Shown: one piece after another, positions 33,405 through 37,328 of the stretch
Position numbering within the stretch: the first letter of the stretch is position 1
Layout of the letters: every line of letters begins with the position of its first letter
Source: Candidatus Eiseniibacteriota bacterium
GTDB taxonomy: Bacteria > Orphanbacterota > Orphanbacteria > Orphanbacterales > Orphanbacteraceae
Length of the DNA stretch: 64,000 nucleotides
Direction: 5' to 3'
Assembly (NCBI GenBank): GCA_024276995.1
Contig: JAJRWB010000014.1
Span: forward strand, 1 to 64,000
The notes under the pieces: model-generated
Told to the model about the DNA's origin: nothing
What the model saw: only the letters and a program-made list of their open reading frames with translations
The model's database searches: none
Position numbers and translations under genes: made by a program

Positions 33405-33413
33405 TGTTAAGAT
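33405..33413 (+). promoter_or_regulatory. Extended -10 promoter candidate for the cDPG synthetase-sucCD operon
   Basis: TG-T-TAAGAT is an extended -10 element with no good -35 (TTCTCC at 33384). A start at about 33420 would give a leader of about 110 nt that holds the alternative stems at 33452-33514. Confidence 0.35.
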
Positions 33414-33420
33414 TCCCTAC

Positions 33421-33514
33421 TGTGCCTCGTGCGCACAGAAGAGTCGATTCATCGGAAGACCGGGCCTCATTCGGTTCGGCCTTCGCGGGTCTTCCGACAA
33501 AGGCCAGGAACCGA
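33421..33514 (+). promoter_or_regulatory. Bistable structured leader upstream of the cDPG synthetase gene
   Basis: Small stem TGTGC/GCACA (33421-33437). Stem A pairs TCGGAAGACC (33452-33461) with GGTCTTCCGA (33488-33497), 10 bp. Stem B pairs TCGGTTCGGCCTT (33471-33483) with AAGGCC (33500-33505) plus GAACCGA (33508-33514), 13 bp with a two-base bulge. The 5' arm of B lies in the loop of A and only two bases separate the 3' arms, so full A and full B should exclude each other. The likely ribosome-binding site (AGGATGGA, 33517-33524) follows B at once. No known riboswitch class recognised. Confidence 0.5.
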
Positions 33515-33530
33515 ACAGGATGGAAGTACA

Positions 33531-34886
33531 ATGAGCAGAAAACGTGTTGTGATCATGGGAGCCGCCGGACGGGACTTCCATACGTTCAACACTATCTACC
33601 GCGACGATGCCTCGGTGGAAGTGGTGGCGTTCACCGCCACGCAGATTCCGAACATCGACGGCCGGGCGTACCCGGCTGTTCTGGCGGGATCGCACTATAA
33701 GAAAGGGATCCCGATCCGTCCCGAGGCGGATCTACTCCGGTTGATTGAGAAGGAGAAGATCGAAGAGGTGATCTTCGCCTACAGCGACGTGCCTCACCAA
33801 TATGTGATGAACCGGGCCTCCGCCGTTCTCGCCGCGGGCGCCGATTTCAAGCTGATCGGCATGAATCGCTCGGCGATTCCGAGCACGAAGCCGGTCGTGT
33901 CGATCTGCGCGGGCAGGACCGGTTCGGGCAAGAGCCAGACGACGAGGCGGGTGTGCGACATTCTGCGCGGCATGGGGCTCAAGCTCGCCGTGGCGCGTCA
34001 CCCGATGCCGTACGGCGACCTGGCGAAGCAGGCGGTGCAGCGTTTCAAGACCCTCGCCGACATGGACCGCCACGAGTGCACGATCGAGGAGCGGGAGGAG
34101 TACGAACCCCACATCAAGAACAAGACCGTCGTGTACGCCGGTGTCGACTACGAGGCGATTCTCCGGAAGATGGAAAAAGAGGCGGACGTGATTCTTTGGG
34201 ACGGCGGCAACAACGACCTCCCCTTCTTCATGCCCGATCTATCGATTGTCGTCGTCGACCCCCACAGGCCGGGCCACGAGGTGACGTACCATCCGGGCGA
34301 CACGAATGTGCGCGCCGCCGACGTGATCCTGATCAACAAGATCGACACCGCCGACCTCGAGGATATCGAGGATGTGCGCGAGAACATCGACATCGTCAAT
34401 CCCGGCGCGGTGGTCATCGACGGCGCCTCGCCCCTCACGGTCGACCATCCCGAGTGGATCCGCGGAAAGACGGTCCTCGTGGTGGAGGACGGCCCGACGC
34501 TCACCCACGGGGAGATGGAATACGGCGCGGGCACCGTGGCGGCCCGACGCTACGGCGCGGCCGACCTGATCGATCCGCGGCCTTTCGCGAAGGGCTCGAT
34601 CCGCGGCGTGTTCGAAAAGTACCCGGAAGTGGGGACCCTTCTTCCCGCCATGGGCTACGGGGCGAAGCAGATCCGCGACCTCGAGAGGACGATCAAGGCA
34701 TCGGGCGCGGAGGCGGTGGTGATCGGCACGCCGATCGATCTTTCGAAGCTGATCAAGATCCCGATGCCCGCCGTTCGGGTCGGTTACGAACTGCAGGAGA
34801 TCGGCAAGCCGGACCTCACCGATGTGCTCACCGCGTTCTGGAAGAAGCACGGGAAGAAGAGCGCGCGGCGAGGTGGGAAGAAATGA
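33531..34886 (+). CDS. Cyclic 2,3-diphosphoglycerate synthetase family GTPase-like protein
   Basis: 451 residues. MSRKRVVIMGAAGRDFHTFN and the P-loop CAGRTGSGKSQTTRRV (GRTGSGKS at 128-135) with WDGGNNDLPFF and INKIDTAD are characteristic of the COG2403 family named after archaeal cyclic 2,3-diphosphoglycerate synthetase (cpgS). The archaeal enzyme closes 2,3-diphosphoglycerate to the cyclic form; many bacterial members are untested. It is coupled to sucC (ATGA) and heads a four-gene operon with sucD and ndk. Catalytic assignment is by family only. Confidence 0.82.
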   Translation: MSRKRVVIMGAAGRDFHTFNTIYRDDASVEVVAFTATQIPNIDGRAYPAVLAGSHYKKGIPIRPEADLLRLIEKEKIEEVIFAYSDVPHQYVMNRASAVLAAGADFKLIGMNRSAIPSTKPVVSICAGRTGSGKSQTTRRVCDILRGMGLKLAVARHPMPYGDLAKQAVQRFKTLADMDRHECTIEEREEYEPHIKNKTVVYAGVDYEAILRKMEKEADVILWDGGNNDLPFFMPDLSIVVVDPHRPGHEVTYHPGDTNVRAADVILINKIDTADLEDIEDVRENIDIVNPGAVVIDGASPLTVDHPEWIRGKTVLVVEDGPTLTHGEMEYGAGTVAARRYGAADLIDPRPFAKGSIRGVFEKYPEVGTLLPAMGYGAKQIRDLERTIKASGAEAVVIGTPIDLSKLIKIPMPAVRVGYELQEIGKPDLTDVLTAFWKKHGKKSARRGGKK

Positions 34887-36028
34887 AGATCCACGAATAC
34901 CAGGCGAAGGAGATCTTCGCGGAACATGGAATCCCGGTGCCCGACGGGAAGGTGGCTTCCACCGCCGGGGAGGCGGAAAAGATCGCCCGCGAGATCGGCG
35001 GTGGTGTGGTGGTGAAGGCGCAGGTCCACGTCGGCGGCCGGGGGAAGGCGGGGGGCGTGAAGCTCGCCGCCACTCCCGAGGAGGCGAAGGAGAAGGCGGC
35101 CGCCATTCTCGGCATGGAGATCAAGGGTCTGCCTGTGAAGAAGGTGCTCGTCACCCGGGCGATGGAGATCGCGTCGGAATCGTACGTCGGCCTCCTTCTT
35201 GACCGCGGATCGAAGAGGATCACCTGGCTCGTCAGCGCGTCGGGCGGCGTCGATATCGAAGAAGTGGCCCGCACGAGCCCCGAGAAGATCCGCCGTCTCA
35301 CCGTCGATCCCCTCGTCGGTTTCCGGTGGTACCACGCTCTCCGTCTCGCCTCGGCGCTCTACGACGACCGCGGCCAGATCAAGGCGGCGGCGTCGATCAT
35401 CACCAAGCTTCACAAGGCGTTCGTCGACACCGACTCGTCGCTCGCCGAGATCAATCCGCTCATCACCACGCCCGGCGGCGAGATATGGGCGGTAGACGCG
35501 AAGCTGAACGCCGACGACAGCGCCCTGTTCCGGCAAGAAGAGATCGAAGCGATGCGTGATCTCGACGCGGAAGCGCCCGCCGAGACCCTCGCCCGGGAGA
35601 AAGGACTGTCCTACGTTCCGCTCGACGGGGAGATCGGATGCGTCGTGAACGGCGCCGGTCTCGCCATGGCGACGATGGACGTGATCCAGCACCACGGCGG
35701 CTCACCGGCGAACTTCCTCGACATCGGGGGGAGCTCCAACCCGGAGAAGGTGGTCGCCGCCCTCGATATCGTGACCGCCGAGAGCCACGTGAAGGCGATC
35801 CTCTTCAATATCTTCGGCGGTATCACGCGATGCGATGACGTGGCCGAAGGGATCCGCCAAGCGTTCGAGACGAAAGAGCCGTCGGTGCCGGTGGTGATCC
35901 GCCTGACCGGCACGAATGAGGAAAAAGGCCGCCGGATCCTGACGGAGGCGGGTTACTCCGCGCTCACCACCATGGATGAGGCGGTGAGGGAAGTGGTCTC
36001 TCTGGCGGGGGGAGGTAAGGGAGAATGA
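34883..36028 (+). CDS. sucC: Succinyl-CoA synthetase beta subunit
   Basis: 381 residues. Starts [12 protein letters not shown], the universal SucC N-terminus. It has an ATP-grasp domain ([20 protein letters not shown]), [16 protein letters not shown] and the C-terminal CoA-ligase domain ([26 protein letters not shown]). Forms the nucleotide-binding subunit of the TCA-cycle enzyme that interconverts succinyl-CoA and succinate. It overlaps both neighbours by four bases. Confidence 0.97.
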
Positions 36029-36906
36029 GCATTCTCATCGACCGGGAAAGCCGCGTGGTAGTGCAGGGGATCACCGGAAGGGACGGATCTTTCCATACCC
36101 GGGGTATGCTGGAATACGGCACCCGCGTCGTCGCGGGCGTGACCCCGGGCAAAGGCGGACAGAAGTTCGACGACGTTCCCGTGTTCGACACGGTGGGCGA
36201 AGCGGTGGAAGAGACGAAAGCCGATGTTTCAATCATTCTCGTGCCGCCCCGTTTCGCCACCGACGCTCTCTATGAGGCGATCGAATCGGGTGTTGCGCTG
36301 GTGGTGTGCATCACCGAAGGGGTTCCGGCGCTCGACATGGTCGGCGTCTATGCCGCCGCGCACATGAACGGCGTCCGCCTCATCGGCCCGAACTGCCCGG
36401 GGCTGATCTCTCCGGGCAAGGCGAAGGTCGGTATCCTCCCGGGATCGATTCACAAGCCGGGGAATGTGGGGGTGATCTCGCGAAGCGGTACGCTGACCTA
36501 TGAGATCGTGGCGAACCTCACCGCCAAGGGGATCGGCCAGTCGACGTGCATCGGCATCGGCGGCGATCCGATCGTCGGGTCGTCGTACCTCGATCTTCTT
36601 CCCCTCTTCCAGGCCGATCCGGAAACGGCGGGCATCGTGCTGATCGGGGAGATCGGCGGCACCGACGAAGAAGAGGCGGCCGAGATGATCCTCTCGGAGA
36701 TCGACAAGCCGGTCGTCTCGTTCATCGCGGGGCGGACGGCGCCCCCCGGGAAGAGGATGGGCCACGCCGGCGCGATCATTTCGGGCGGAAAGGGAACGGC
36801 GGAAGACAAGATCGCCGCCCTCGGGAAGGCGAACGTTCCGGTGGCGGATATACCGTCGCAAATCGGTGATCTCATGGAGAAAGCACTGGGAGTGAATTCA
36901 GAATGA
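36025..36906 (+). CDS. sucD: Succinyl-CoA synthetase alpha subunit
   Basis: 293 residues. Rossmann CoA-binding domain with [26 protein letters not shown] and [13 protein letters not shown]; the phosphorylated His lies in [20 protein letters not shown]. Together with sucC it gives the complete enzyme. It overlaps sucC and ndk by four bases each (ATGA), so SucCD and Ndk are made together. Confidence 0.97.
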
Positions 36907-37328
36907 TCGAACGCACACTGCTCATGGTCAAGCCGGATGCCACCGGAAGGGGGCTCGCCGGAGAGATCGTCGGCCGGCTGGAAAAGGGCGGATTCAAACT
37001 GGTCGCCATACGATCGCTCACCCTCACGCGGAGCGAGGCGGAGTCGTTCTACGGCGTGCATCGCGAGCGGCCTTTCTTCGGCGACCTCGTGGAGTACATC
37101 ACCTCCGGCATGGTGGTCCCGATGGTGCTCGAGAAGGAGAACGCGATCCTCGACCTACGCGAGTTTATCGGCGCCACGAACCCGGCGGAGGCGAGGAAAG
37201 GTTCGATCCGCAGCGACATGGGGACCGATATCCAGCATAACGCGGTTCACTCCTCCGATGGACCGGACACGGCGCGACGGGAGATCTCCTTCTTTTTCAC
37301 CGAAAGGGAACTGGTTCAGGTCGTGTAA
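36903..37328 (+). CDS. ndk: Nucleoside diphosphate kinase
   Basis: 141 residues, full family length. [12 protein letters not shown] start, Kpn-loop region and active-site His116 in [16 protein letters not shown]. Transfers gamma-phosphate among nucleotides. The sucCD-ndk coupling makes sense because Ndk uses the GTP/ATP formed by succinyl-CoA synthetase. Ends the operon. Confidence 0.97.

What the first reader, a model, noticed from the sequence alone, without database searches (positions are those of the whole stretch)
33421..33530. Leader with two mutually exclusive stems before the cDPG synthetase-sucCD-ndk operon
A 10-bp stem (33452-33461/33488-33497) and a 13-bp bulged stem (33471-33483/33500-33514) interleave, with only two bases between the 3' arms, so both cannot form fully. 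The second ends just before the ribosome-binding site. This is the layout of a switch and may be an undescribed regulatory RNA sensing a central metabolite.
Basis: partly seen in the sequence, partly recalled or inferred. Interest (0 to 1): 0.65.

Follow-up and report, generated by a model that had tools for sequence, protein, structure and literature searches.

The report
Conserved pseudoknot in an operon leader
A short RNA fold just before the start of a four-gene metabolic operon has been kept intact in four related genomes while the DNA around it changed beyond recognition, so it is probably a previously undescribed control of translation, but what it senses is unknown.

Summary
The two stems are real, but relatives change how they should be read. 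Five genomes of a small phylum (window plus four; four distinct leaders) carry one copy each, directly before a cpgS-like–sucC–sucD–ndk operon. The core is invariant (one loop U apart) while upstream DNA is mostly unalignable and fourfold sites are 35-49% identical. P1 changes on both sides (constrained test, P about 4e-5 from three relatives). No Rfam family matches, and a model built from the leaders finds nothing convincing in about 380 genomes outside the phylum. A sister genome that lacks cpgS but keeps sucCD-ndk lacks the motif, so the RNA follows cpgS, not succinyl-CoA synthetase. Most likely a translational control element of the direct-occlusion kind; trigger (metabolite or protein) undetermined.

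The parts
33408..33413 (+). putative extended -10 box (TGT-TAAGAT); predicted transcript start about 33420, upstream of the whole RNA
   Evidence: consensus match only; boxes like a -10 (TATAAT, TACAAT) lie 23-49 nt before GGCC in all five leaders. The stricter tool scan found no promoter.
33452..33461 (+).
   Evidence: perfect 10-bp pairing; shorter P1 with different letters in relatives, 5 of 7 pairs change on both sides; constrained test P about 4e-5
33488..33497 (+). P1 3' arm
   Evidence: as for the 5' arm
33463..33466 (+). P2 5' arm GGCC
   Evidence: invariant in all five leaders
33478..33481 (+). P2 3' arm GGCC
   Evidence: invariant in all five leaders
33467..33469 (+). loop L1, UCA
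   Evidence: invariant
33470..33477 (+). pseudoknot helix 5' arm UUCGGUUC in the hairpin loop
   Evidence: invariant apart from the first U, which is missing in G002, G003 and G006; 8-bp perfect complement to 33508-33515
33508..33515 (+). pseudoknot helix 3' arm GAACCGAA, directly before the Shine-Dalgarno
   Evidence: invariant in five leaders
33498..33507 (+). linker L3 of the pseudoknot (10 nt; 9-11 nt in relatives)
33500..33505 (+).
   Evidence: not conserved: 57% of cells paired against 52% in shuffles
33517..33520 (+). Shine-Dalgarno AGGA (AAGG(A) in relatives)
   Evidence: sequence; 1-4 nt after the pseudoknot helix in all leaders
33531..34886 (+). cpgS-like gene, 451 aa, remote relative of archaeal cyclic 2,3-diphosphoglycerate synthetase
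   Evidence: profile E = 8.4e-10 to PDB 9sxb; best fold match 8oru, E = 9.3e-17, TM 0.45
34883..36028 (+). sucC, start overlapping the cpgS stop
   Evidence: NCBIfam NF001913 above its cut-off
36025..36906 (+). sucD
   Evidence: NCBIfam NF004230 above its cut-off
36903..37328 (+). ndk
   Evidence: NCBIfam NF001908 above its cut-off

Best explanation
The leader carries a cis-acting RNA of about 65 nt that folds as an H-type pseudoknot: P1 plus P2 form a hairpin, and the hairpin loop pairs with GAACCGA(A) directly in front of the Shine-Dalgarno. A trigger, most likely a small molecule or a protein tied to the cpgS-like gene, shifts the balance. Shown here: the complementarity, its conservation, the change of P1 on both sides, the position next to the Shine-Dalgarno, and absence of the motif where cpgS is absent from the operon. 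Inferred: that all three helices coexist, the direction of control (off when closed), translational rather than transcriptional action, and the existence and nature of a trigger.
For: Identical core in five genomes while upstream flanks mostly match no better than shuffled DNA and fourfold sites are 35-49% identical. P1 kept with different letters. Two conserved blocks complementary over 7 nt, chance about 0.01. Constant geometry: L1 3-4 nt, no spacer between loop helix and P2, J3 6-7 nt, L3 9-11 nt. Loop helix ends 1-4 nt before AAGG(A). Single copy per genome, always before this operon. G001 keeps PHP-sucC-sucD-ndk but has neither cpgS nor the motif. No terminator-like site. Direct occlusion by H-type pseudoknots is an established riboswitch mechanism (PMC10907184).
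Against: P2 and the loop helix never vary, so the pseudoknot itself has no covariation. Only four distinct leaders of one family. The alignment behind the pair counts was fitted by hand; with free positions the relatives' P1 gives only P 0.09-0.15 each. In the window the non-pseudoknotted long hairpin is the predicted minimum, -30.4 against -26.0 kcal/mol for folds with P1/P2, and nested-only folding of G003, G006 and G002 does not favour P1/P2 either. No ligand, protein or expression evidence.
Confidence: 0.6

Rival explanations
1. One reading: P1 and the long stem 2 are alternative folds of a two-state switch and do not coexist.
For: In the window stem 2 has 14 pairs and is the predicted minimum; in G002 the loop helix as a plain hairpin is also favoured (probability 0.86).
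Against: The extension that makes the stems exclude each other is not conserved; without it the linker is 9-11 nt and the helices share no bases. In G003, G004 and G006 the plain hairpin has a probability near 0.
Confidence: 0.18
2. The conserved fold is an operator bound by a protein (CpgS-like, SucCD, Ndk or another), which represses translation, rather than a small-molecule aptamer. The pseudoknot may still form.
For: Short invariant core, single copy, next to the Shine-Dalgarno; many ribosomal-protein leaders work this way (general knowledge).
Against: No operon protein has a known RNA-binding domain in the Pfam scan. Nothing tested directly.
Confidence: 0.25
3. An RNA thermometer or a target of a trans-acting small RNA that pairs with the loop.
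For: The invariant loop and the Shine-Dalgarno-proximal arm would also fit an accessible pairing site.
Against: A thermometer would not need invariant letters in the loop and L1; no candidate small RNA was sought or found.
Confidence: 0.08
4. The conservation comes from a leader peptide or an upstream extension of cpgS.
For: The frame is open in the window (GTG 33429) and G003/G006 have a 23-codon upstream frame from an ATG inside the motif that overlaps the cpgS start.
Against: The distance of the motif to the cpgS ATG differs modulo 3 between leaders, the two conserved blocks are not in the same frame in G004, and G000 and G002 have no such upstream frame.
Confidence: 0.03
5. Chance inverted repeats without function.
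For: Folding energy z-scores are unremarkable.
Against: 0 of 3000 shuffles have such crossing helices, and the core is identical across genera whose flanks are unalignable.
Confidence: 0.02

Closest known systems
H-type pseudoknot direct-occlusion riboswitches: SAM-II/V, preQ1-I, SAM/SAH (PMC10907184, PMC11625349)
   Same: Hairpin whose loop pairs with the stretch at the ribosome-binding site, short leader, translational position.
   Different: No sequence or Rfam match; larger (two stacked stems P1 and P2 with an asymmetric internal loop); the Shine-Dalgarno lies just after, not inside, the loop helix; gene context unrelated; no ligand known.
sucC and sucA-II RNA motifs (RF01759 gamma-Proteobacteria, RF01758 Pseudomonadales; PMC2864571)
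   Same: Leader RNAs before TCA-cycle operons.
   Different: No match in Rfam scans up to E = 10; other phyla; here the first gene is cpgS-like and the RNA is missing where cpgS is missing.
Ribosomal-protein leader pseudoknots such as E. coli S15 (general knowledge)
   Same: Pseudoknot over the ribosome-binding site, feedback on the operon.
   Different: The operon encodes no ribosomal protein; no Rfam leader family matches.

Membership tests
Any Rfam 15 family (preQ1, SAM-II, SAM-V, sucA-II, sucC and others) | Covariance-model score above the gathering cut-off | tested here: not met
   0 matches in the window; no overlapping match up to E = 10 in four leaders
Direct-occlusion H-type pseudoknot riboswitch (as a mechanism) | Hairpin loop pairs with a downstream strand in H-type topology | tested here: inconclusive
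   complementarity and geometry present and invariant in all leaders; coexistence with P1/P2 not shown; no covariation in that helix
Direct-occlusion H-type pseudoknot riboswitch (as a mechanism) | Ribosome-binding site within or next to the pseudoknot | tested here: met
   AAGG(A) starts 1-4 nt after the loop helix
Direct-occlusion H-type pseudoknot riboswitch (as a mechanism) | Binds a small molecule that changes translation | not testable with these tools
   needs in-line probing and reporter assays
sucC RNA motif (RF01759) | Match to the family model and leader of the suc operon | tested here: not met
   no Rfam match; the motif is absent before sucC in G001
Cyclic 2,3-diphosphoglycerate synthetase (label of the first gene) | Homology to the archaeal enzyme | tested here: inconclusive
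   remote: profile E = 8.4e-10 to 9sxb over about 110 residues; best fold match 8oru but TM 0.45, 15% identity. Activity not shown.

The most novel reading that the evidence does not exclude
A new riboswitch class: a translational H-type pseudoknot aptamer that senses a metabolite of the CpgS-like enzyme (a phosphoglycerate-type or related compound) in an uncultured phylum.
Probability: 0.3. Interest if true: 0.75.

Novelty: new member of a known kind. Interest (0 to 1): 0.5.

Why it matters
It is an unlisted, strongly conserved leader RNA tied to a widespread enzyme family whose bacterial function is not established; its trigger would point to what that enzyme makes or uses. If it is a riboswitch, it would add a pseudoknot class from an uncultured phylum.

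Tried and rejected
Rfam search of the window and of four leaders: none. Covariance model over 386 genomes, then three small phyla and a second set of 385 that largely repeats the first: only the five family members; the next best hit is 26 bits (G025), in GC-rich sequence without the conserved loop, judged chance. Model over 95 loci with cpgS homologues, nearly all from other phyla: best E 0.099, judged chance. Scan for the same architecture with other letters in 92 such leaders: 4 hits against 1.7 in shuffles, not convincing. Exact core in viral contigs: one hit, without the downstream arm. Second copy in the own genome: best 18.7 bits against 60.7. Leader peptide: disfavoured. Terminator: none.

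Full report
Observation. Crossing helices of this size occur in none of 3000 shuffles of the leader and in 1 of 1162 tiles of the window. Thermodynamic stability by itself is ordinary.

Relatives. The window lies in a small phylum of which seven genomes are held, all of one family. A homologue of the gene behind the leader is present in six of them. In G002, G003, G004 and G006 the leader holds GGCC-UCA(U)UCGGUUC-GGCC followed by GAACCGAA and the Shine-Dalgarno. The exact core occurs once in each of these four genomes and in the window's genome. G005 has only a more distant cpgS-like copy (60% identical) on a short contig, with an unrelated leader. G001 has no cpgS-like gene.

Selection. Leaving out the close pair G003/G006, the proteins are 69-78% identical and fourfold-degenerate sites 35-49%. 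The 100 nt upstream of the motif match no better than shuffled DNA in most pairs; G002 is slightly above it against G003 and G006 (57-62% against 52-53%). The core is identical apart from one U in the loop. The distance of the motif to the cpgS start differs modulo 3 and there is no upstream reading frame common to all leaders, so a peptide does not explain the conservation.

Structure. P1 is kept with different letters: 5 of 7 pairs change on both sides among four distinct sequences. The alignment behind that count was fitted by hand (three junction bases left out of G004, three distal pairs left out of the window's P1, one N added), so I also tested P1 with shuffled flanks and positions fixed around the core: P = 0.005-0.009 in each of three relatives, combined 4e-5; the window, which defined the positions, was left out of the combination. 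Without fixed positions the same three give P 0.09-0.15 each. P2 and the loop helix never vary, so for them conservation shows importance but not pairing; that the two conserved blocks are complementary over 7 nt has a chance of about 0.01.

Pseudoknot or switch. P1, P2 and the loop helix share no bases. In all leaders the loop helix abuts P2 with no spacer, L1 is 3-4 nt and L3 9-11 nt, proportions that an H-type pseudoknot can take (general knowledge, not modelled here). In the window that extra pairing makes the long hairpin the predicted minimum, -30.4 kcal/mol, so an alternative state there is possible. Nested folding of the relatives gives mixed results: P1 is favoured in G004, the loop helix as a plain hairpin in G002, and neither in G003 and G006. 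The program used cannot score a pseudoknot, so energy does not decide the matter.

Position and mechanism. Boxes like a -10 lie 23-49 nt before GGCC in every leader, so the predicted transcript includes the whole motif; these are consensus matches, not mapped starts. The 7-bp loop helix ends 12-18 nt before the ATG and 1-4 nt before AAGG(A). No terminator-like site is present. The cpgS stop overlaps the sucC start in the window, G003, G004 and G006. The simplest mechanism is direct occlusion of the ribosome site when the pseudoknot is closed, as in SAM-II and preQ1-I leaders (PMC10907184, PMC11625349). Direction and trigger are inferred.

What it belongs to. The order hldE-(PHP)-RNA-cpgS-sucC-sucD-ndk-glycosyltransferase is conserved in the five genomes; the PHP gene was not found in G003 and G006. 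G001 has hldE2-PHP-sucC-sucD-ndk without cpgS, and no model match. Its sucC leader still aligns to that of G003 better than any of 200 shuffles (34.8 against a maximum of 33.0; three other comparisons are not above shuffles) but lacks the UCAUCGGUUC loop and GAACCGAA. This looks like a decayed copy, on weak evidence. The RNA therefore goes with cpgS rather than with succinyl-CoA synthetase; this rests on one genome. The protein is a remote relative of archaeal cDPG synthetase: profile E = 8.4e-10 over about 110 residues; best fold match 8oru with E = 9.3e-17 but TM 0.45.

Spread. A covariance model built from four of the leaders scores the five at 57-77 bits (by construction) and finds nothing convincing in about 380 further genomes (the second set mostly repeats the first), three small phyla or 95 loci around cpgS homologues. 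A scan of metagenomes was not available.

Verdict. A real, conserved leader RNA that matches no listed family, of a known kind, restricted to one small phylum as far as could be searched; most likely a translational pseudoknot control of the cpgS operon. Whether it is a riboswitch is open.

Noticed in passing
L152 1400-1503 (G001): The sucC leader of the genome without cpgS keeps a -10-like TATACT and CCGATTCCAACG shared with the G003 leader but not the loop or GAACCGAA; possibly a decayed copy of the RNA.
   Followed up: partly
window 33417-33441: A further small inverted repeat CTACTGTGC/GCACAGAAG (8 of 9) would lie at the 5' end of the predicted transcript; the relatives G002, G003 and G006 have much shorter predicted 5' ends.
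   Followed up: no
L148 8095-8280 and L150 6100-6292 (minus strand): Between the matched part of sucD and ndk, G003 and G006 carry about 170 nt of Ala/Lys-rich coding-like sequence, probably a C-terminal extension of SucD.
   Followed up: no
L033, L034, L043, L046, L048, L055; L025, L030, L032, L036, L037, L041, L057: In other phyla the cpgS-like gene sits directly before ndk (records named Neomarinimicrobiota) or a few kb before sucC-sucD (mostly Zixibacteria), so an association of these genes is older than the RNA.
   Followed up: partly
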